A DNA stretch of 64,000 nt, from NCBI GenBank assembly GCA_035635555.1, contig DASQAT010000013.1:62001-126000 (forward strand), in the 5' to 3' direction. This document shows, piece by piece, positions 32,678-41,909 of the stretch. The notes under the pieces are model-generated. The model ran no database searches. It had not been told where the DNA came from and worked only from the letters and a program-made list of their open reading frames with translations. The DNA is from Candidatus Dormiibacterota bacterium. GTDB lineage: Bacteria; Acidobacteriota; Polarisedimenticolia; Gp22-AA2. Both the position numbers and the translations under genes were made by a program. Numbering within the stretch: the first letter of the stretch is position 1; every line of letters starts with the position of its first letter.

Positions 32678-32707
32678 TTGTCAAGGCAAGGGGAGTTGGG
32701 ATATAAG
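32678..32707 (+). promoter_or_regulatory. Sigma-70 promoter for the putative polysaccharide operon
   Basis: TTGTCA (32678-32683), 18-base spacer, TATAAG (32702-32707). It leaves an untranslated leader of about 100-150 bases before the first gene. Confidence 0.65.
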
Positions 32708-32859
32708 AGGCCGCCGACTCGAAAGCGGCGGGAAAGCGCGGGAAACACGGCGCTTGAGTCACCGCGACCTTCCCCATCCAGCCGATCCGGTCAGAGAGAA
32801 ATCACGGGAGTCCGACCGTCCTGCCGTCCGCGCGTTCGTCGCTTCGACTCGGGGCCCCC

Positions 32860-35694
32860 GTGCTCTGCGCCGCCCTCGGCGTCCTCGCGCCCTTCATGGG
32901 CCCGGACCGCCCGCCCGGAGGGACGACCAGCCCGGCCCCTCCTCCGGAGCGCTCCCTGTATGACGAGGCGGTCCGCCTTTACTCCGCCGGACGCTTCCAG
33001 GAGGCGTTGCAGGTGATCCACCGCGCGGCGGGAACGGGCGTGGAGACGACAGCGCTCCGCTCGCTCGCCGGCTGGTGCTGCCTCCGATCGGGAGCGGTTC
33101 GGCGGGCCGAGGCCGAGTTCCGCGCGGCGCTGCGGATCGACTCCGAGGCGGTCGATCCCCACGTCGGCCTGGGGTACGCGCGCCTGCGCGGAGGTTCACC
33201 GGCCGAAGCGGAAGGAGAATTCCGTTTCGCGCTGCGCGGGGAGGCCCGGAATCTCGACGCGCTGAAAGGACTCGGTCTCGCGCTCCGCGACCAGAAGAAG
33301 TACGCTGAAGCGGCGGAGGCGTTCAGTGACGCGCTGCGGCAGGAACCGGGCGATTCCGAGTCCAGGCATCTGCTCGGGCAGGTCCTCGCAGCGGCGGGCG
33401 CGTCGACGGAGTCGCGACCCCGCGGGCCCTCGAGCGAGACGCCGATGAATGTCGTCGCCCGGGCGCGGGACGGCCGGTTCTTCGTCCGCGACAGCGGACG
33501 CTTCCGGCCGCTGTTCGTGAAGGGAGTCAACATGGGGGTGGCGCTTCCGGGACGCTTCCCCGCGGAATTCCCGCAGGACGAGGCGACCTACGGCTCCTTT
33601 CTCTCGGACGTGTCCGGGATGGGGGCGAACGCGGTTCGTCTCTACACCCTCCTGCCACCGGCGTTCTACGCCGCGCTCGACCGGCACAACCGCGGGTCCG
33701 GAACGGGCGGGATCTGGCTCCTGCAGGGCGTGTGGACCGAGCCGCCGGCGGGGGACGACTACGACGGAGAGGCCTTCGTCCGGGAATTCAGGGACGAGAT
33801 CCGCCGCGTGATAGACGCCGTGCACGGCAACCTCGACCTCGGGCCGCGGCCGGGGCACGCACAGGGCGCGTACCGCGCGGATGTCTCGGCGCGCGTGCTC
33901 GGCTACGTGCTGGGGCGCGAGTGGGAGCCCCAGTCGGTGGCGACGTACGACGGCTGGTTCGCGAAAGGCGGCAGGGAGTCGTTCGCCGGGCCCTATTTCA
34001 CGGCCCGCATCGAATACGGCGCCACGCCGTTCGAGCTGTGGCTGGCCCGCACCATGGACTTCGCCGTGCAGTACGAGACCGACACCTACCGCCAGCAGCG
34101 GCCGGTGTCGTTCGTGAACTGGCCCACGCTCGATCCCCTGCGTCATCCGACCGAATCGACCGCCGCGGAGGAGGCCGCCCTGGTCCGCAAAATGGGTGAC
34201 GCGGAGGCCGCGGGGATGATCGAGGCCTACGACGAGTGCGAGGACTGCGTTTCCGTGGATGCGGCGCACATCGTGCCGACCGGGAGGGCGCAGGGCGGGA
34301 GCTTCGCCACCTACCACGCCTATCCTTATTATCCCGACTTCATGAATCTCGACCCCGGTTATGGCCAAGCGCGCGACTCGCGGGGTCCGAGCAATTACAT
34401 CGGCTACCTGCGCGACCTCAAGACGCACCACGGCGCCCAGCCGGTGCTGATCGGCGAGACCGGCGTCCCGAGCAGCCGCGGGGTCTCGCACCTGCAGCCG
34501 CAGGGGTGGAACCACGGCGGCCACAGCGAGCGCGAGCAGGGGGAGATCGACGCCCGGCTGATGATGGACATCGACGAGGCGGGTCTCGCGGGGGGCGTCC
34601 TGTTCGCTCTCGTGGACGAGTGGTTCAAGAGAAACTGGCTGGTGCTTGATTTCGAGACGCCCGCCGAGCGCAAGCCGCTGTGGCTGAACGTCCTGGATCC
34701 GGAGGAGGGGTACGGGATCCTCGCCGCCAGGCCGGGTCAGGCTGGATTCCGGGTGATCATCGACGGCAGGCCTTCCGACTGGACCGGCGTCGCACCGCTT
34801 CTGTCCCGGCGGGAGGGGGGGCCGGAGCGATCGTTCAAGGACGGCTACGATCGCGCGCGGACGCTGCGGGGAATCGAGGTGACCTCGGACGAGGCCTACC
34901 TCTACATCCGGCTCGACGTGGACCGCCTCGACAGCGACGGGGACGGCCTCCCCGACTGGGGCAAGGCGGCCTACCTGATCGGCATCGACACCTATGACGG
35001 TCGCCTGGGAGACCACCGGCTGCCGATCACCGACCCGGCGTCGTCGCCCGCCGGCCTCGAGTTCTGCGTCGTCCTCGACGGCCGGGACACCTCCCGTCTT
35101 CTGGTCGATGCCCCCTACGACATCCAGTCGAACCGCCACCGCCGCCCCTTCGCCTCGGTCGAGAATACCGACGGCCGCTTCGTGGAGATGAAGGTCGAGA
35201 CGAACCGAAGGCGTGTCGGGCGCGACGGCACCGTCTACCCGGCGCGTCAATCGAGCCGCTCGCCGCTCCTCCACGCCTCGATGGATCCTCGCGATCGCGA
35301 CTATTCGACCCTGGCCGACTGGCGCGTGGGAGTCGCAGAGAACCTGATCGAGATCCGCCTGGCCTGGGGGCTTTTGAACGTGACCGATCCGTCCTCGCGC
35401 TGCGTCCTGCACGACGATCCGGGGAATCTCCGCAAGGTCGGGTGCATCGAAACCGCGGGATTCCGTTTCTACGCAGTGGCGGTCAAGCCCGGAGGCACCC
35501 CCTTTGGACCGACCCCGTTCGACGCGCGCCTGGCCGACCGGCTGCCGCGGGGAGACCTCGCGAAGCCGTCCGATCTGCCGATGTACACGTGGCGGGGCTG
35601 GGACCAGCCCGCCTCGCGTATCGAGAAGAAAGAGACGTGGCCGATCCTGAAGCGGGCGTTCGAGTCGCTTCCGAAGCGGAACCCGGCGCCGTGA
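32860..35694 (+). CDS. TPR / glycoside-hydrolase-like TIM barrel / carbohydrate-binding fusion protein
   Basis: A protein of 944 residues from GTG 32860. Residues about 30-185 are TPR repeats (LYDEAVRLYSAGRFQEALQV, KYAEAAEAFSDALRQEPGD). Residues about 195-620 resemble a clan GH-A TIM barrel: FVKGVNMGVALPGRFP, GANAVRLYTLLPP, GYVLGREWEP (E354/E356, possible acid/base) and PVLIGETGVPSSRG (E533, possible nucleophile). Residues about 628-885 resemble a CBM9/DOMON beta-sandwich (FRVIIDGRPSDWTG, SDEAYLYIRLDVDRLDSD). The start is uncertain: no Shine-Dalgarno precedes the GTG, and in-frame codons just upstream would supply the Arg residues expected of a signal peptide (CTG 32821 is possible). First gene of a five-gene operon; overlaps the next by four bases. 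Confidence 0.72.
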   Translation: MLCAALGVLAPFMGPDRPPGGTTSPAPPPERSLYDEAVRLYSAGRFQEALQVIHRAAGTGVETTALRSLAGWCCLRSGAVRRAEAEFRAALRIDSEAVDPHVGLGYARLRGGSPAEAEGEFRFALRGEARNLDALKGLGLALRDQKKYAEAAEAFSDALRQEPGDSESRHLLGQVLAAAGASTESRPRGPSSETPMNVVARARDGRFFVRDSGRFRPLFVKGVNMGVALPGRFPAEFPQDEATYGSFLSDVSGMGANAVRLYTLLPPAFYAALDRHNRGSGTGGIWLLQGVWTEPPAGDDYDGEAFVREFRDEIRRVIDAVHGNLDLGPRPGHAQGAYRADVSARVLGYVLGREWEPQSVATYDGWFAKGGRESFAGPYFTARIEYGATPFELWLARTMDFAVQYETDTYRQQRPVSFVNWPTLDPLRHPTESTAAEEAALVRKMGDAEAAGMIEAYDECEDCVSVDAAHIVPTGRAQGGSFATYHAYPYYPDFMNLDPGYGQARDSRGPSNYIGYLRDLKTHHGAQPVLIGETGVPSSRGVSHLQPQGWNHGGHSEREQGEIDARLMMDIDEAGLAGGVLFALVDEWFKRNWLVLDFETPAERKPLWLNVLDPEEGYGILAARPGQAGFRVIIDGRPSDWTGVAPLLSRREGGPERSFKDGYDRARTLRGIEVTSDEAYLYIRLDVDRLDSDGDGLPDWGKAAYLIGIDTYDGRLGDHRLPITDPASSPAGLEFCVVLDGRDTSRLLVDAPYDIQSNRHRRPFASVENTDGRFVEMKVETNRRRVGRDGTVYPARQSSRSPLLHASMDPRDRDYSTLADWRVGVAENLIEIRLAWGLLNVTDPSSRCVLHDDPGNLRKVGCIETAGFRFYAVAVKPGGTPFGPTPFDARLADRLPRGDLAKPSDLPMYTWRGWDQPASRIEKKETWPILKRAFESLPKRNPAP

Positions 35695-37424
35695 TCCGCA
35701 TCCCTCCGGCCACGCTCGCCCTGATCGCTCTCGCCGCGGCGCCGGCCGCCGGGTCTCCCGTCCGGGCGGCAACACCGGCCGCCGCCGCGCACGAGTCTCC
35801 CGCAGCACCGGCCCCGGGCGACGCGGCCGCGCGTCCCCTGGCCGAGATGATCAAGGAGGCCGACGCCGCGTTCGCACGTGAAGACTTCGGAACGGCCAGG
35901 ACCCTCTACGAGCAGGTGACCCGGCTGCAGCCGGACAACGTCCGCGCCGTGCACCGGCTCGCGCTCCTGCAGTCGTGGGACGACGAACTCGAAGCGTCGG
36001 CGGCCAACTACCGCCGCGCCCTGGCCCTGGCGCCGGACGACTTCGACATCCGGCTCGGGCTCGCCCGTGTGCTGTCCTGGAGGCACGACTACGACGAATC
36101 GATCGCGCTGTACCGGGCGCTGCGAGAGACACATCCCGACGATGCGCGCGTCCTCCTCGGCCTGGGGAACTGTCTCTCGTGGGCCGGCCGCTACTCCGAG
36201 GCCGAGGCCGTCTTCAAGGACATGGAGGATCGCCGGATCGAGCCGGTCCAGGCGCACGCGGGCCGGGCGCGCCTGCGCGGCTGGCAGGGGAACCTGGACG
36301 AGGCGGAGCATTTCTGGCGCGACGTCCTGCGCGCCGATCCCGGCAACCTCGACGCGCGCATCGGCATGGCGTACGTGCACCACTGGCAGGGTCTCGACCG
36401 CACGGCGCGCGAGCAGGCCGACAACATCGTCCTCGACCATCCGGAGAGCAAGGACGCGAAGGAGCTGAAGGAGACGATCCGCCGGACCCTCCGCCCGCAC
36501 GCCGACGCGGACACCTTCCGGTACGGCGACACCGACTCCAACCGGGTGGACGGTGCTGTGGCGTCGTGCACGTTCATGGCCGAGCCGCAGACGTCCATCC
36601 GCATCGCCTACTCGACGTACGACGCCTCGTTCCGCTGCAAGGACGGGCGGTTCTGCGACGAGCCGGGTCTCGCCGTCGGCGACGCGATCGACACGCGGGC
36701 GCAGTCGCTCTCGGGCACGCTGACGTCGCGCGTGATCCGGCCGCTGACCTTCAACGCCCGCCTGGGCGCGGTCCGCGAGGAGACCTTCGGCGGAGGGGCG
36801 CGCCTGGTCGGAACGCTCGGCGGCTACCTGCGCTGGCAGGTCGGGCCGCGGTTCGCCGTGGGAACGAGCGGGGGGCGCGAGGCGTTCCTCGACACCGCTC
36901 CCCTCATCGACCGCGGCATCCGAACGACCGACGCGAACGCGCGCGTGGAGTTCCGCTACCGGCCCGCGTGGCTCCTGTCGGGGAGCGCCGGAGCCGCGTC
37001 GTTCTCCGACGGCAACGCGCGCCGCACCGCGGGCGCCGCGCTCGAGTGGCGTCTGCCCGTGTCCCATCCGTGGGTCTCGGGCACCTTCGACGTGCGCTAC
37101 CGCGGATTCAACGCCGACGAGGACAACGGCTACTTCGACCCGCTGCGCTACGACTCGGAGCTCCTGACCGTGGCGGTCCGGGACGACTGCCGCGACGGGA
37201 GGTTCTACTGGCATCTGGAGGGAACTTACGGGCGGCAGGCCTTCACGCTCGGTGCCGTCAAGCGTGACGACGCGGTGAGCGGCGGCAACGCCCTGGCGGG
37301 GATCAACTTCGCGAACGGGAGGGCGGCCTTCGAGGCGTCGTACGCGCGCAGCGACTACGCCCTGAACGTCGCGCAGGGATTCACGTACAGCCGGACGGGG
37401 TTCTACTTCCGGTTCCGGTTCTAA
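35691..37424 (+). CDS. TPR/outer-membrane beta-barrel protein (YaiO/BcsC-like exporter)
   Basis: A 577-residue protein. A signal peptide (PATLALIALAAAPAAGSPVRA) precedes six or so TPR repeats (residues about 50-260; for example DFDIRLGLARVLSWRHDYDE). The C-terminal part from about residue 280 has alternating strands, aromatic girdles and a final Phe (FYFRFRF), as expected for an outer-membrane barrel. The arrangement fits the YaiO or BcsC/PgaA logic: periplasmic TPR scaffold plus export pore. The GTG overlaps the previous stop (GTGA). An outer-membrane pore for the polymer made by the downstream GT2 is inferred. Confidence 0.8.
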   Translation: MIRIPPATLALIALAAAPAAGSPVRAATPAAAAHESPAAPAPGDAAARPLAEMIKEADAAFAREDFGTARTLYEQVTRLQPDNVRAVHRLALLQSWDDELEASAANYRRALALAPDDFDIRLGLARVLSWRHDYDESIALYRALRETHPDDARVLLGLGNCLSWAGRYSEAEAVFKDMEDRRIEPVQAHAGRARLRGWQGNLDEAEHFWRDVLRADPGNLDARIGMAYVHHWQGLDRTAREQADNIVLDHPESKDAKELKETIRRTLRPHADADTFRYGDTDSNRVDGAVASCTFMAEPQTSIRIAYSTYDASFRCKDGRFCDEPGLAVGDAIDTRAQSLSGTLTSRVIRPLTFNARLGAVREETFGGGARLVGTLGGYLRWQVGPRFAVGTSGGREAFLDTAPLIDRGIRTTDANARVEFRYRPAWLLSGSAGAASFSDGNARRTAGAALEWRLPVSHPWVSGTFDVRYRGFNADEDNGYFDPLRYDSELLTVAVRDDCRDGRFYWHLEGTYGRQAFTLGAVKRDDAVSGGNALAGINFANGRAAFEASYARSDYALNVAQGFTYSRTGFYFRFRF

Positions 37425-37455: not shown

Positions 37456-37848
37456 ATGGCGACGGCGGTGCCGGGCCGGGAACGGATCCTGATCGCGGAC
37501 GGCGACCCGCTGGCGAGGCGCTTCGTGGGCGCGCTTTTGGCGAACAACGGCTATGAGGTGCACCTCGCCGAGGACGGCGACTCGGTTCTTCGGAGCGCCG
37601 TCTCGCTGAAGCCCCGTCTCCTGGTCATCGACCTCGTTCTCCCGGGCAAGGACGGCTTCGAGGTGCTGCACGCCCTGAAGGGGGAGCCGGCCACGGCCCG
37701 GCTTCCGGTGCTGATCCTTTCGGTGAAGGACCGCGAGGAGGACGTCGTCAAGGCTCTCAGCCTCGGAGCGGAGGACTACGTGAGCAGGCCGTTCAGCACG
37801 CGGGAGCTTCTGGCCCGCATCCGCAAGATCCTGGAAAGAACCGGGTAG
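37456..37848 (+). CDS. Stand-alone receiver-domain protein with altered conserved residues
   Basis: A 130-residue REC domain without an output domain. The phospho-acceptor D59 (VIDLVLPGKDGF) and S89 (LILSVKD) are present. The second of the two acidic metal ligands is Gly (ILIADGDP, G16), and the invariant Lys before Pro is Arg (DYVSRPF, R111). Such changes suggest altered or phosphorylation-independent signalling. No kinase is adjacent. It sits inside the polysaccharide operon, 31 bases after the barrel gene and five before the HEAT gene, so it may gate the synthase. Confidence 0.88.
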   Translation: MATAVPGRERILIADGDPLARRFVGALLANNGYEVHLAEDGDSVLRSAVSLKPRLLVIDLVLPGKDGFEVLHALKGEPATARLPVLILSVKDREEDVVKALSLGAEDYVSRPFSTRELLARIRKILERTG

Positions 37849-37853
37849 CCGCG

Positions 37854-39107
37854 GTGGAGCCGATGCGTCTCCTGATGGTCCGGGTCGTCGAGGGAGTCGG
37901 CGGGTTCCTCCTCCTGCTCACCGTGGCCATCGTCATCAACAAGGCGCTGCGGGAGATGGGGGAGAGGCTCGACCGGCGCAGGCGCGCCCTGCTCGAGCCC
38001 CTGGTGTTCGAGTACCTCGGTGCGGCCACGTCCAGGCCGCTCCGTGACGTCCTGCCGGAACCGCCGTCGCGGCGCGATCGGCGTCTGCTGGAGCGGATCC
38101 TCCTGGAATCGGCGCGTCTCGTGAAGGGAAGCACCCAGGAGCGGATCACCGCCGCCTTCGAGGGGCAGGGCGCGGTGCGCGAGGCGATCCGCGCCCTGGA
38201 AAGCGCCCGCTGGTGGAAGCGCGCCGACGCCGCCGAAAAGCTGGGCCTGATGCGAAGCAAGGCGGCCGTCGAACCGCTCGTCCAGCGGATGAACGATCCG
38301 GAGCCGGAAGTCCGCATCCGCGCGGCGCGCGCCCTGGGTCTCATCCGGGGCAGGACCTCGATCCGCCCGCTCGTCGGCGCCCTGGCCGATCCCAGCCGCT
38401 GGTCGGCCATCCGTGTCGCCGAGATTCTGATCAGCGTGGGCAGCGAGGCCGTGGACGAGCTGCTCGCGGCCTTCGACACCCTGCCGCAGAACGGCCGTGT
38501 CTCGGCCCTCGACGTGCTGGGCCGCATCCGGGGTCTGCGTGCCCTCGGGCTGATGAAGAGCTGCCTCCTCGATCCGCACCCCGACATCCGGGCGCGCGCG
38601 GCGCACGGGCTCGGCCTCATCGGCGACCCGGGAACCACACCGGATCTGGTCGCGGCGCTCCAGGACCAGGAGTGGCCGGTACGCGCCATGGCCGCCAAGT
38701 CGCTCGGCAGGCTCGGGGACCCGTCGGCCATCCTCCCCCTGCGGGAGGCGATGAAGGACCGCCGGTGGTGGGTACGCTACAACTCCGGTGAAGCGCTGCG
38801 CCACATGGGGAACGCGGGTCTCGAGGCGCTCACCGACATGCTGAGCTCGGACGATCCGTACGCCCGTCACATGGCCGTGGCGCAGCTCGAGGAGGGGCGG
38901 GTCATCGACCAGTTCGTCGCCGAATTGACCTCGAGCGACAGCCCCACGCGCGCCGCGGCCATCCGATTCATCGACAAGGTCACCGCGGCGGCGCGCATCG
39001 ACGAGCGCACGCGGCAGGCGGCCACGAGCGCTCAGGAGGGCGTGCGCCAGGCCCTGTCCCATATCCTCAGGGCGCCCGCGCCGCCCGGAGGCGGAGGCGT
39101 TCGATGA
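37854..39107 (+). CDS. Membrane-anchored HEAT-repeat protein
   Basis: A 417-residue protein. One N-terminal transmembrane helix (GVGGFLLLLTVAIVIN) precedes a basic linker and about eight HEAT/PBS-lyase-like repeats (WKRADAAEKLGLMRSKAAVE, VRIRAARALGLIRGRTSIRP, VRYNSGEALRHMGN). The repeats would face the cytoplasm beside the GT2 synthase. No enzymatic residues are seen; a scaffold or regulator linking the receiver to the synthase is plausible. The GTG at 37854 or the ATG at 37863 could be the start; GGAG precedes the latter. Overlaps the GT2 gene by four bases. Confidence 0.8.
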   Translation: MEPMRLLMVRVVEGVGGFLLLLTVAIVINKALREMGERLDRRRRALLEPLVFEYLGAATSRPLRDVLPEPPSRRDRRLLERILLESARLVKGSTQERITAAFEGQGAVREAIRALESARWWKRADAAEKLGLMRSKAAVEPLVQRMNDPEPEVRIRAARALGLIRGRTSIRPLVGALADPSRWSAIRVAEILISVGSEAVDELLAAFDTLPQNGRVSALDVLGRIRGLRALGLMKSCLLDPHPDIRARAAHGLGLIGDPGTTPDLVAALQDQEWPVRAMAAKSLGRLGDPSAILPLREAMKDRRWWVRYNSGEALRHMGNAGLEALTDMLSSDDPYARHMAVAQLEEGRVIDQFVAELTSSDSPTRAAAIRFIDKVTAAARIDERTRQAATSAQEGVRQALSHILRAPAPPGGGGVR

Positions 39108-40543
39108 CCTGGATCTCGATCCTGACCCTCACCGTCCTCGGGTTCAACCGCTGGGTGATCTACTACTTCGGACTCCTCAACGGCATCTATCTCCTGCTCT
39201 TTCTGGTGTCGTTCGTCGAAGTGATGCGTTTCGTCAAGCGGACGTTCTTCTCCGATTACGAGCAGATCCTCCGGTCCGACATGACCTGGCCGATCTCGAT
39301 GATCGTCCCGGCCTTCAACGAGGCGCGTTCCATCGTCGAGACCGTGCGCTCGCTTCTGGGAGTGAACTACGGTCAGTTCGAGGTCGTCATCGTGAACGAC
39401 GGTTCGACCGACGGGACCCTCGAGCGCCTCATCGAGACGTTCGAGCTGAAGCGCACCGACCGGATCTACCACCGCACCCTGCCGACCGGCCCGGTGCGCG
39501 GGATCTACTGGTCGCTCGAATACGCCAACCTGATCGTCGTGGACAAGGAATGGAGCGGGAAGGCGGAGGCGCTGAACACCGGCATCAACGTGTCCCGCTA
39601 CCCCCTGTTCTGCTCCGTCGACGCCGACTCGATCATCGAGGACAACGCGCTCCTCCGCGTCGTCAAGCCGTTCATGGAGCATCCTCAGGAAATGGTCGCG
39701 GCGGGAGGCATCGTGCGCATCGTGAACGGCTGCGAGGTGCGCGAGGGGCGCGTGCTGCGGATCGGCCTGCCGAAGAAGGCCCTGCCCGTCTTCCAGGTCG
39801 TGGAGTATCTCCGCGCGTTCCTCGGGGGGCGCATCGGCTGGAGCAGCCTGAGGTCCCTGCTGATCATCTCCGGCGCCTTCGGGCTGTACCGTAAGTCGGA
39901 GGTCATCGCCGCGGGCGGTTACGACTCGTGGTCCGAGACCGAGGACCTCGAGCTGGTGCTGAAGCTCCACGAGCACATGCGCAGGAGCGGACGGAAGTAC
40001 CGCATCGTCTTCGTCCCCGACCCGGTCTGCTGGACCGAGGTCCCGAGCACCTTCCGGGTGCTGGCGCGCCAGCGCAACCGTTGGCATCGGGGCATGCTGC
40101 AGAGCCTCTGGCGCCACAGGCGGATGATCCTGAACCCGGAGCACGGCGCCATCGGCATGCTCGGACTCCCCTATTTTCTGCTGTTCGAGACCCTCGGCCC
40201 CTTCGTCGAGATCCTCGGCTACGTCATGGTCGCCCTGTCCTTCTGGCTCGGAGTCCTGAATCTCGATTTCTTCGTGCTCTTCCTCATCTTCGCCATCTTC
40301 TTCGGCGTCTTCCTGTCCGTCGCCGCCGTCCTGCTGGAAGAGATCTCCTTCAGGCGCTATCCCGGCTGGGAGCATCTCGCCCGGCTGGTCCTCTACGGTG
40401 TCCTCGAGAACCTCGGCTACCGCCAGAGCCTCGCGCTGTTCAAGGTGAAGGCGTTCTGGGACTTCCTGCGCGGCCACCGCAAGGCCTGGGGGCGGATGGA
40501 GCGGGAGGGGTTCCGGGCGGCCGGGGAAAGACCCGCGGCCTGA
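39104..40543 (+). CDS. Processive family-2 glycosyltransferase (polysaccharide synthase type)
   Basis: A 479-residue membrane GT2 of the cellulose/hyaluronan/PNAG synthase type. An N-terminal TM helix (residues about 17-40) comes first. The GT-A core follows with ISMIVPAFNEARSIVETVRS, VVIVNDGSTDGT, WSGKAEALNTGINVS, DADSIIE (DxD), SETEDLELVLKL (TED acid) and ARQRNRWHRGM (Q/RxxRW, the mark of processive enzymes). Two to three C-terminal TM helices (LLFETLGPFVEILGYVMVAL, FFVLFLIFAIFFGVFLSVAA) finish it. No PilZ domain is visible. It probably polymerises and translocates a beta-linked glycan. ATGA overlap with the HEAT gene. Confidence 0.88.
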   Translation: MTWISILTLTVLGFNRWVIYYFGLLNGIYLLLFLVSFVEVMRFVKRTFFSDYEQILRSDMTWPISMIVPAFNEARSIVETVRSLLGVNYGQFEVVIVNDGSTDGTLERLIETFELKRTDRIYHRTLPTGPVRGIYWSLEYANLIVVDKEWSGKAEALNTGINVSRYPLFCSVDADSIIEDNALLRVVKPFMEHPQEMVAAGGIVRIVNGCEVREGRVLRIGLPKKALPVFQVVEYLRAFLGGRIGWSSLRSLLIISGAFGLYRKSEVIAAGGYDSWSETEDLELVLKLHEHMRRSGRKYRIVFVPDPVCWTEVPSTFRVLARQRNRWHRGMLQSLWRHRRMILNPEHGAIGMLGLPYFLLFETLGPFVEILGYVMVALSFWLGVLNLDFFVLFLIFAIFFGVFLSVAAVLLEEISFRRYPGWEHLARLVLYGVLENLGYRQSLALFKVKAFWDFLRGHRKAWGRMEREGFRAAGERPAA

Positions 40544-40544
40544 C

Positions 40545-41909
40545 CTAGCCCGCCAGGATCCTCTTGACCTCTCCCACGAGGTAGAGGGAGCCGCTGACGA
40601 CGACGAGAGCCCCGGGGGAAGCCTCGTCGAGGGCGAGCCGCACAGCCCCTTCGACCGACGGTGCGTGCCTGGTGTCGGAGTGCCGCTCGGCCGCCAGACG
40701 CGACAGCGTCCCCGGTGCCTCGCCGCGAGGGACGGGAAGCCCCGTGACGACCACCGTCTGCGCCAGCGGACACAGGATGTCGAGCATCTCGGCCACGGGC
40801 TTGTCCTTCATCGCCGCGAACACGAGGGTCGCCGGGCGGCCGGACTGGTACTCCTCCAGGTACGCCGCGAGAGTCGCGCAGCCGGCCGGGTTGTGGGCCC
40901 CGTCGAGGAGGAGATCGGGATGGGCGCGTATGAGCTCGAGCCGGCCAGGCCAGACGGCGTCGCGGAGGCCGGCCGCGATCGTCCCGGGGTCGATGCCCCG
41001 GACCCCGGCGGCGGCGAGCCGCTCGGCGACTAGGACGGCGGTCACTGCGTTCTCGACTTGATGAACCCCGCGCAGCGACAGGTGGAGCTCGGGATAGCGG
41101 CCGCCCGAGGGCGTGACCAGGGAGAATACGGGAGGATCGGGAAAACGGATCGGGCGGGCGGGGCGAGGGCCCGCGCCCCCGCGCCGCGCGGCTCCCCGGG
41201 TCGCATCTTCGAGGGGTCGGATCTCGCAGTCGAGGGTCGACGCCAGGTGGGCCCCGACTCGCCTGGCCTCGCCTCGAATCACTTCGAGCGCCGCGGTCTC
41301 CTGTCTCGAAACGGCAGCCGGTACGCCCGGCCGGAGGATGCCCGCCTTCTGGTAGGCGATTTCCCCGAGCGTCCCGCCGAGCCACTGGGTGTGGTCCATG
41401 GCGATCTGCGTGACGGCGCAGACCAGGGGAGTGACGACGTTGGTGGCGTCGAACCGGCCCCCCATCCCCACCTCGAGCACGACGATCGGCACCTTCCGCG
41501 CGCGGAAATGCAGGAAGGCGAGCGCGGTCGTGGCCTCGAAGTAGGTCGGCGGGTCGTTCCGCAGCAGGCGATCGGCCGCGATCACATCGCGCAGCTCGGA
41601 GGTGAGGGCGGCCAGCTCGGATGCGGCGATCGGCGCCTCTCCCACGACGATCCGCTCTTCGAACCGAACCAGGTGCGGCGAGGTGTAGACACCGGGCGCG
41701 TGCCCCGCCTGCCTCAGGATCGAGGCCACGTCGGCCGCGACGGAGCCCTTGCCGTTCGTGCCGGCGATCAGCACGGAAGGGTACGTCGCCTGCGGGTCAC
41801 CCAGGCGGTCGAGAAGCCTCCGGATCCGGTCCAGACCCGGACGAATGCCCAGGACCTCGAGGGAATCGAGGTAGGCGAGCGCTTCCTCGTAGGTCACGAT
41901 ACCCCGCAT
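40545..41909 (-). CDS. folC: Bifunctional folylpolyglutamate synthase/dihydrofolate synthase
   Basis: A 454-residue Mur-ligase-family enzyme. The P-loop IAGTNGKGSVAADVASIL, TSPHLVRFEERI, VVLEVGMGGRFDATNVV, MDHTQWLGGTLGEIAYQKAGI and LLLDGAHNPAGCATL are diagnostic. The start is placed at MRGIVTYEEALAYLDSL, where the family N-terminus begins, rather than further upstream. Third gene of accD-MFS-folC. It is convergent with the GT2 gene, one base apart. Confidence 0.93.
   Translation of the reverse strand: MRGIVTYEEALAYLDSLEVLGIRPGLDRIRRLLDRLGDPQATYPSVLIAGTNGKGSVAADVASILRQAGHAPGVYTSPHLVRFEERIVVGEAPIAASELAALTSELRDVIAADRLLRNDPPTYFEATTALAFLHFRARKVPIVVLEVGMGGRFDATNVVTPLVCAVTQIAMDHTQWLGGTLGEIAYQKAGILRPGVPAAVSRQETAALEVIRGEARRVGAHLASTLDCEIRPLEDATRGAARRGGAGPRPARPIRFPDPPVFSLVTPSGGRYPELHLSLRGVHQVENAVTAVLVAERLAAAGVRGIDPGTIAAGLRDAVWPGRLELIRAHPDLLLDGAHNPAGCATLAAYLEEYQSGRPATLVFAAMKDKPVAEMLDILCPLAQTVVVTGLPVPRGEAPGTLSRLAAERHSDTRHAPSVEGAVRLALDEASPGALVVVSGSLYLVGEVKRILAG

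What the first reader, a model, noticed from the sequence alone, without database searches (positions are those of the whole stretch)
32860..35694. Triple fusion TPR - GH-A-like barrel - CBM9/DOMON-like, with doubtful start codon
Seen: three separable regions, with candidate catalytic glutamates E354/E356 and E533 at the positions expected of clan GH-A. The GTG start lacks a ribosome site, and in-frame codons upstream would complete a signal peptide. This domain order is not one I recognise from known polysaccharide systems.
Basis: partly seen in the sequence, partly recalled or inferred. Interest (0 to 1): 0.5.

Follow-up and report, generated by a model that had tools for sequence, protein, structure and literature searches.

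The report
Unnamed sugar-cutting enzyme of exopolysaccharide operons
A secreted protein with three parts (a docking part, a sugar-cutting barrel that no protein-family library I searched names, and a sugar-binding part) sits in an operon that probably makes and exports a slime-like polysaccharide, and its relatives often lie beside the same kind of polysaccharide-making genes in many groups of bacteria and in one archaeon.

Summary
ORF 32860-35694 has N-terminal TPRs, a (beta/alpha)8 barrel and a C-terminal beta-sandwich (AlphaFold2 pLDDT 95.1). E354 follows strand 4 and E533 lies on strand 7, as in clan GH-A; in 76 aligned rows they are Glu in 74 and 75, E356 in only 54. The barrel's best structural match is GH157 (Z 33.4), whose mutated E224 aligns with E533. 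The C-terminus is CBM9/DOMON-like. Pfam and NCBIfam name neither part. The true start is probably upstream, best candidate CTG 32821.

The gene heads a tight operon: GH, TPR/beta-barrel outer-membrane protein, receiver domain, HEAT, GT2. In 149 same-phylum genomes all 20 GH carriers have the GT2, against 16 of 129 others. GH plus HEAT-GT2 recurs across phyla and in Halovivax. I infer a secreted enzyme that trims or transfers nascent exopolysaccharide near the pore, like PgaB's hydrolase part. Substrate and activity are untested; HEAT-GT2 also exists without the GH, and two of 76 rows lack a catalytic Glu.

The parts
32821..32859 (+). Probable N-terminal extension from CTG 32821 that supplies an Arg-containing n-region before the hydrophobic stretch of a signal peptide
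   Evidence: No ATG/GTG/TTG between the stop at 32755 and GTG 32860; CTG 32821 is 233 codons before the barrel motif, as are ATG codons in L016, L018, L020, though start-type codons at 220-221 also occur in relatives; block identical in same-genus L010; hydrophobic residues 7-26 counted from the CTG. Inferred, not proven.
32860..35694 (+). ORF of the finding: TPR - GH-A-like barrel - CBM9/DOMON-like protein (944 aa from GTG)
32953..33402 (+). TPR region (about residues 32-181)
   Evidence: Pfam TPR_16 48.8 bits against cut-off 32.7, TPR_2, TPR_19
33499..34701 (+). (beta/alpha)8 barrel, unnamed family, nearest solved structure GH157
   Evidence: AlphaFold2 pLDDT 95.1; VIA-align Z 33.4, rmsd 2.5 over 319 residues to 9g4n_A, 16% identity; 67 of 68 members have no Pfam match at E 0.01, one matches GH113 at E 0.0028
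33919..33921 (+). E354, candidate acid/base, just after strand 4
   Evidence: Glu in 74 of 76 rows; strand 4 is model residues 152-157 and this is residue 160
34456..34458 (+). E533, candidate nucleophile, on strand 7
   Evidence: Glu in 75 of 76 rows; strand 7 is model residues 335-340 and this is residue 339; aligned with LaGH157 residue 224, which reads Glu in 9fz9 and Ala in the E224A chain 9g4n (mutant named)
34615..34629 (+). DEWFK motif after strand 8; matches DGWWK of LaGH157
   Evidence: D and W in 76 of 76 rows, K in 74 of 76; alignments
34714..35691 (+). C-terminal CBM9/DOMON-like beta-sandwich
   Evidence: AlphaFold2 pLDDT 94.9; CBM74 Z 13.4, glucodextranase Z 11.9, CBM9 Z 9.2 and 8.8, DOMON-like enzyme subunits 2ivf_C and 7b04_C Z 9.0 and 8.6; profile match to CBM9 1i82, E 0.0041
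35691..37424 (+). TPR plus beta-barrel outer-membrane protein, PgaA-like in layout; with GTG 35691 taken as start it overlaps the stop of the GH gene by 4 bases
   Evidence: TIGR03939 74.2 bits (cut-off 366.65); PgaA_barrel 18.1 bits (cut-off 27); hydrophobic residues 1-19 from that start
37456..37848 (+). Stand-alone response-regulator receiver domain
   Evidence: PF00072 84.5 bits
37854..39107 (+). HEAT-repeat protein with one N-terminal hydrophobic stretch
   Evidence: HEAT_2 128.2 bits; hydrophobic residues 4-22
39104..40543 (+). Processive-type family 2 glycosyltransferase, 4-base overlap with the HEAT gene
   Evidence: Glycos_transf_2 76 bits; TIGR03937 PgaC 122.8 bits (cut-off 422.3); QRNRW at residue 323 (QxxRW as a mark of processive GT2 is recalled) and three hydrophobic stretches

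Best explanation
The gene encodes a secreted protein of a synthase-dependent exopolysaccharide operon. Shown: the three folds (two by prediction, TPR by Pfam), the two conserved glutamates at the clan GH-A positions, and the operon with a TPR/beta-barrel protein, a receiver domain, a HEAT protein and a GT2. Inferred: the GT2, with the membrane-anchored HEAT protein, makes and moves a polysaccharide chain across the inner membrane. The TPR part holds the enzyme near the outer-membrane pore and the CBM9-like part grips the chain. The barrel cuts or transfers beta-linkages by a two-glutamate retaining mechanism, which sets chain length or frees chains for export. It works like the hydrolase part of PgaB or like BcsZ (recalled) but belongs to neither family.
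For: Barrel with E354 after strand 4 and E533 on strand 7, Glu in 74 and 75 of 76 rows. GH157 is first by Foldseek (E 1.2e-14) and by VIA-align (Z 33.4, 30.2, 29.7; GH2 next at 28.1), its E224 aligned to E533. CBM9/DOMON-like C-terminus. Tight gene spacing with two 4-base overlaps. Same module elsewhere: of the 49 of 80 loci with at least 8 kb on each side, 37 have the GT2, 34 the HEAT gene and 33 an adjacent HEAT-GT2 pair. Of the 29 loci without a GT2 I searched the genomes of 15: 14 have it elsewhere, and all 15 places found have a HEAT match alongside (13 at 136 bits or more, two at 72.8 and 29.6). In 149 genomes of the phylum 20 of 20 GH carriers have the GT2, against 16 of 129 others (Fisher p 2e-15; by genus 12 of 12 against 13 of 88, p 5e-9; relatedness not corrected). 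A stand-alone polysaccharide deacetylase lies in 8 of 80 loci (Pfam checked for two, L053 and L064; the other six by profile). In L063 one ORF joins GH and outer-membrane protein.
Against: No activity, substrate or localisation is known. The residue before E354 is Arg, Ile, Val or Thr in 74 of 76 rows, not the Asn usual in clan GH-A (recalled). The HEAT-GT2 pair occurs without the GH in 7 of 60 relatives, five of them 97-100% complete. The second Paenibacillus copy lacks E354, and the Planococcus copy lacks both glutamates yet keeps its place beside HEAT and GT2. In 12 of the 49 loci with long flanks no GT2 is near. Substrate clues conflict: GH157 cuts beta-1,3-glucan, while the GT2's best named match is PgaC and deacetylases point to an N-acetylated sugar.
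Confidence: 0.62

Rival explanations
1. It is a transglycosylase rather than a hydrolase: it moves chain ends to branch, lengthen or crosslink the polymer at the cell surface.
For: The same two-glutamate chemistry would serve; GH17 glucanosyltransferases are tied to GT2 enzymes, and the strand-7 motif GETGVPS resembles theirs (both recalled).
Against: Nothing in the model or alignment tells transfer from hydrolysis; a GH157 enzyme, of the nearest fold, is reported as an endo-beta-1,3-glucanase (PMC10229575, passages).
Confidence: 0.15
2. It is a non-catalytic polymer-binding scaffold: TPR, barrel and CBM-like part together guide the chain to the pore.
For: The TPR module of PgaA is suggested to bind PNAG and guide it (PMC9384988, abstract); the Planococcus relative lacks both glutamates and a Paenibacillus copy lacks E354; Arg instead of Asn precedes E354.
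Against: E354 and E533 are Glu in 74 and 75 of 76 rows, and invariant in the 68 rows of A3, which leaves out the plasmid-collection rows that hold the exceptions.
Confidence: 0.13
3. It is an ordinary secreted beta-glucanase for feeding on outside polysaccharide that merely sits beside synthesis genes.
For: Its nearest structural family, GH157, includes an enzyme of fungal beta-glucan use in gut Bacteroides (PMC10229575, passages).
Against: Linked to GT2 and HEAT genes across phyla in several gene orders; 20 of 20 GH carriers have the GT2; overlapping stop and start with the outer-membrane protein.
Confidence: 0.08

Closest known systems
GH157 endo-beta-1,3-glucanases (LaGH157, PDB 9g4n/9g5g/9fz9; BcellWH2_01931)
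   Same: Barrel fold (Z 33.4, rmsd 2.5 over 319 residues), E224 aligned with E533, and a D-x-W-[FW]-K motif after strand 8.
   Different: About 16% identity; profile E only 0.0073 and 0.0041, with no single stretch of independent E below 0.29; Foldseek's own whole-length superposition is poor (TM 0.34, rmsd 24); TPR and CBM9-like parts; lies in a synthesis-type operon instead of a glucan-use locus.
pgaABCD (PNAG) system: PgaA, PgaB, PgaC
   Same: TPR/beta-barrel outer-membrane protein, GT2 best matched by PgaC, and a secreted hydrolase-like protein; in other lineages also a polysaccharide deacetylase.
   Different: PgaC and PgaA equivalog cut-offs are missed by far (122.8 of 422.3; 74.2 of 366.65); the hydrolase is of another family; HEAT and receiver genes are added; no deacetylase in the window operon.
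Gram-positive Pel clusters with CotH, poly-phosphate polymerase and DUF4956 (PMC7112168, passages seen)
   Same: In the Planococcus relative the same three accessory genes stand directly before the barrel gene.
   Different: There the partners are pel genes; here barrel, HEAT and GT2.
CBM9 / DOMON-like and CBM74 beta-sandwiches
   Same: Fold of the C-terminal domain (Z 8.6-13.4); weak profile match to the CBM9 of Thermotoga xylanase 10A (E 0.0041).
   Different: No Pfam match at E 0.01 in any of 68 members; ligand unknown.

Membership tests
Clan GH-A | (beta/alpha)8 barrel | tested here: met
   AlphaFold2 pLDDT 95.1, eight strands in order; best structural matches are GH157 and GH2 barrels (50 rows shown)
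Clan GH-A | Catalytic Glu at the ends of strands 4 and 7 | tested here: met
   Model residues 160 (E354) and 339 (E533); Glu in 74 and 75 of 76 rows
Clan GH-A | Asn before the acid/base (usual, with exceptions; recalled, not strictly defining) | tested here: not met
   Position 159 is Arg in 54 rows, Ile 12, Val 6, Thr 2, Pro 1, Asp 1
Clan GH-A | Retaining glycoside hydrolysis | not testable with these tools
   Needs an assay
GH157 | Clear sequence similarity to family members | tested here: inconclusive
   Profile against PDB: E 0.0073 and 0.0041 for 9fz9; single-sequence search finds no GH157; CAZy models not on hand
GH157 | Nucleophile equivalent to LaGH157 E224 (its role as nucleophile inferred from the E224A mutant title) | tested here: met
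   Aligned with E533; E224A named
GH157 | Endo-beta-1,3-glucanase activity | not testable with these tools
   Needs an assay
CBM9 (C-terminal domain) | CBM9-type beta-sandwich | tested here: met
   7nwo Z 9.2, 1i82 Z 8.8; CBM74 and glucodextranase score higher
CBM9 (C-terminal domain) | Sequence match to a CBM9 model | tested here: inconclusive
   1i82 at E 0.0041 by profile; 0 of 68 members match any Pfam family at E 0.01
PNAG system (pgaABCD) | PgaC and PgaA equivalog scores | tested here: not met
   122.8 of 422.3 and 74.2 of 366.65 bits
PNAG system (pgaABCD) | PgaB (deacetylase plus its hydrolase) in the operon | tested here: not met
   No such match among the seven window proteins scanned; the genome's PF01522 deacetylases lie on other contigs

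The most novel reading that the evidence does not exclude
This is a founding member of an undescribed glycoside hydrolase family in clan GH-A which, with the HEAT-GT2 pair, marks an uncharacterised kind of exopolysaccharide synthase machine shared by many bacterial phyla, both Gram-positive and Gram-negative, and by a haloarchaeon. The HEAT protein takes the place of the accessory subunit (PgaD, BcsB or Alg44 type, recalled), and N-terminal adapters (TPR in many diderms, another domain in Bacillota) fit the enzyme to the envelope.
Probability: 0.5. Interest if true: 0.68.

Novelty: new variant of a known kind. Interest (0 to 1): 0.56.

Why it matters
The best-known exopolysaccharide operons (cellulose, PNAG, Pel, alginate) carry an enzyme that cuts or alters their own polymer (recalled in part; PMC9384988, abstract). 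It gives a concrete handle (two glutamates, one gene) for finding what polymer Acidobacteriota, Gemmatimonadota, Thermus, Deinococcus, many Bacillota and a haloarchaeon make with it.

Tried and rejected
GH-less relatives: I suspected that the ~640-800-aa genes without Pfam match near GT2 and YaiO replaced the GH. Alignment A6 shows that L112, L113 and L114 share a membrane protein of another kind and that the L109 and L111 ORFs are unrelated, probably wrong frames; dropped. The A3 profile finds no GH in those seven genomes and three more except one weak fragment in G036 (E 1.4e-4).

A first deacetylase profile was contaminated by fused GH ORFs and hit nearly every GH ORF. I replaced it by one built from eight stand-alone genes chosen from that list; so the eight match it by construction. 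Beyond them it hits L078 (88.6 bits) and, weakly, the tails of L064, L075 and L066 (29.1-20.5 bits) and three L091 ORFs (21-23 bits). Pfam finds nothing in the L064 tail, so fused deacetylase tails are a hint only.

The outer-membrane-protein profile also picks up plain TPR proteins (for example L079, L104 in Bacillus), so I do not rest on its counts.

GH17 was considered from the GETGVPS motif (recalled); no GH17 row is among the 50 shown, which excludes nothing. PHROGs gave nothing. A sigma-70 scan did not flag the TTGTCA-18-TATAAG pair seen by eye at 32678-32707. A degenerate DNA pattern found nothing in two genomes. PDB codes 9FZ9, 9G5G and 9G4N are in no held paper. Literature searches around the module gave no description of it in the listings, abstract and passages I saw; one listed paper that holds 'HEAT repeat' and 'exopolysaccharide' (PMC12419801) I did not open.

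Full report
What is there. ORF 32860-35694 (+) encodes 944 residues from GTG. Pfam finds TPR repeats in about residues 32-181 and nothing after. Searched alone, barrel and C-terminal parts have only one chance-level Pfam match each (E 0.31 and 0.15). Among 68 relatives one matches a Pfam family at E 0.01 (GH113, E 0.0028). NCBIfam (68 barrels) and Pfam on the C-terminal part (68) give none.

Fold. AlphaFold2 with a 68-row alignment gives pLDDT 95.1 and pTM 0.95 for residues 195-944. Strands 1-8 of the barrel are at model residues 26-30, 64-67, 92-97, 152-157, 222-226, 289-292, 335-340 and 384-387. E354 (model 160) follows strand 4; E533 (model 339) lies on strand 7. Foldseek and VIA-align put GH157 from Labilibaculum antarcticum first (E 1.2e-14; Z 33.4, rmsd 2.5, 319 aligned), before GH2 enzymes at Z 28.1 and below; Foldseek's own superposition over the whole length is poor (TM 0.34, rmsd 24). 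A profile search reaches the same protein by sequence (E 0.0073; 0.0041 with the barrel alone), aligning E533 with residue 224, Glu in 9fz9 and Ala in the mutant 9g4n. These profile scores are modest and rest on two weak stretches. The C-terminal domain folded alone (pLDDT 94.9) matches CBM74, glucodextranase, CBM9 and DOMON-like subunits at Z 13.4 to 8.6, above the immunoglobulin-like rows at 7.0 and below. CBM9 1i82 also matches by profile at E 0.0041.

Conservation. In 76 aligned rows E354 is Glu in 74 and E533 in 75; E356 is Glu in 54 and Asp in 15. So E354 is the better acid/base candidate. It is preceded by Arg (54 rows) or Ile/Val/Thr (20), not by the Asn usual in clan GH-A (recalled). 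The exceptions are the second Paenibacillus cellulosilyticus copy (no E354) and Planococcus maritimus (neither Glu).

Start. There is no ATG/GTG/TTG between the stop at 32755 and GTG 32860, and no Shine-Dalgarno-like sequence before that GTG. Of eleven relatives printed, three of the same order have an ATG 233 codons before the barrel motif and a fourth at 231. In the window CTG 32821 lies at 233 and completes a signal-peptide-like start. But start-type codons at 220-221, the distance of the GTG, occur in five of the eleven too. A same-genus relative shares the CTG block, though it has its own GTG five codons further up. An upstream start is likely; which codon stays open.

Operon. With GTG 35691 taken as its start, the next gene, a TPR/beta-barrel outer-membrane protein (to 37424), overlaps the GH stop by four bases. 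Then come a receiver domain (37456-37848), a HEAT protein (37854-39107) and a GT2 (39104-40543, overlapping the HEAT gene by four bases) with QRNRW. folC follows on the other strand at 40545. The GT2's best named family is PgaC, 122.8 bits against a cut-off of 422.3.

Spread. By record titles these are Acidobacteria, Gemmatimonadetes, Deltaproteobacteria/Geobacteraceae and Thermodesulfobacteriota, Nitrospirota, Abyssobacteria, Cyanobacteria, Thermus, Bacteroidota, Bacillota, Myxococcales, WOR-3 and the archaeon Halovivax asiaticus. Plasmid records add Deinococcus radiophilus, Paenibacillus and Planococcus. Of 49 kept loci with at least 8 kb on both sides, 37 have the GT2 (400 bits or more), 34 HEAT (100 bits or more) and 33 an adjacent pair; over all 80, 51, 48 and 46. 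Of the 29 loci without a GT2 I searched 15 genomes: 14 have one elsewhere, and all 15 places found show a HEAT match alongside, two of them weakly (29.6 and 72.8 bits).

Co-occurrence. In 60 relatives, the window's genome included, the GH is in 17, the GT2 in 26, HEAT in 23 and the outer-membrane protein in 17, each at its own cut-off. Sixteen of 17 GH carriers have both GT2 and HEAT; the other, G011, has its GH on a 5.6-kb contig. Seven of the 43 without GH have HEAT and GT2; a profile search of these and three more finds one weak fragment. In 149 genomes of the phylum, all at least 90% complete, the GH is in 20 and the GT2 in 36, including all 20. By the listed places 18 of the 20 have GH and GT2 on one contig within about 4 kb. 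Fisher p is 2e-15 by genome and 5e-9 by genus, without correction for relatedness.

Variation. TPR-like N-termini were detected in 33 of 80 loci. A Bacillota-type ~390-aa domain is marked by a DKTVP-like motif in 23, and L087 and L102 have N-termini of similar length without it; that domain has no Pfam match in the one example scanned. In the window's own genus L011 and L012 show no TPR hit. Five loci (L064, L065, L066, L075, L078) carry a 316-346-aa C-terminal extension; a deacetylase profile hits it clearly in L078 and weakly in three others, and Pfam finds nothing in the L064 one. Stand-alone deacetylases sit in 8 of 80 loci, two confirmed by Pfam. L063 has GH and outer-membrane protein in one ORF. 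One Bacillota example carries a receiver-GGDEF protein before HEAT and a histidine kinase after the GH. Planococcus has poly-phosphate polymerase, DUF4956 and CotH genes before its barrel gene; these are also found beside pel operons (PMC7112168, passages).

Reading. The closest working model is the PNAG system, where PgaA's TPR region raises the deacetylase and hydrolase activities of PgaB and is suggested to guide the polymer (PMC9384988, abstract). I think this protein does the hydrolase job for another polymer, held in place by its own TPRs. What is shown is anatomy, conservation and linkage; catalysis, polymer, localisation and partner contacts are inferred. The polymer may be a beta-glucan (from GH157) or an N-acetylated sugar (from PgaC-likeness and deacetylases); the evidence does not decide.

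Noticed in passing
window 32678-32707: TTGTCA-18-TATAAG, sigma-70-like by eye, upstream of the operon and largely conserved in a same-genus relative; the consensus scan did not report it.
   Followed up: partly
L027:9830-15161: Paenibacillus cellulosilyticus carries two tandem barrel genes; the second keeps the E533 equivalent but has lost E354.
   Followed up: partly
L028:4470-12824: Planococcus maritimus plasmid: poly-phosphate polymerase, DUF4956 and CotH genes directly before the barrel, HEAT and GT2 genes; the barrel protein has lost both catalytic glutamates; a qatC defence gene lies downstream.
   Followed up: partly
L026:9488-14522: The module (TPR-barrel, HEAT, GT2) is on plasmid pRadio2 of Deinococcus radiophilus.
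   Followed up: no
L063:9377-13957: GH and outer-membrane barrel run in one ORF in a Gemmatimonadota MAG; a similar but frame-broken case is L084.
   Followed up: partly
G012, G021, G026, G030, G032, G034, G036: Related genomes with HEAT-GT2 (YaiO barrel protein found beside it in three of those scanned) but no GH.
   Followed up: partly
L071:9896-18294: Haloarchaeon Halovivax asiaticus has the barrel gene followed by a histidine kinase, with GT2 and HEAT about 5 kb away on the other strand.
   Followed up: no
window 33196-35808 (-): 870-aa antisense ORF over most of the GH gene, as is common in high-GC coding DNA.
   Followed up: no
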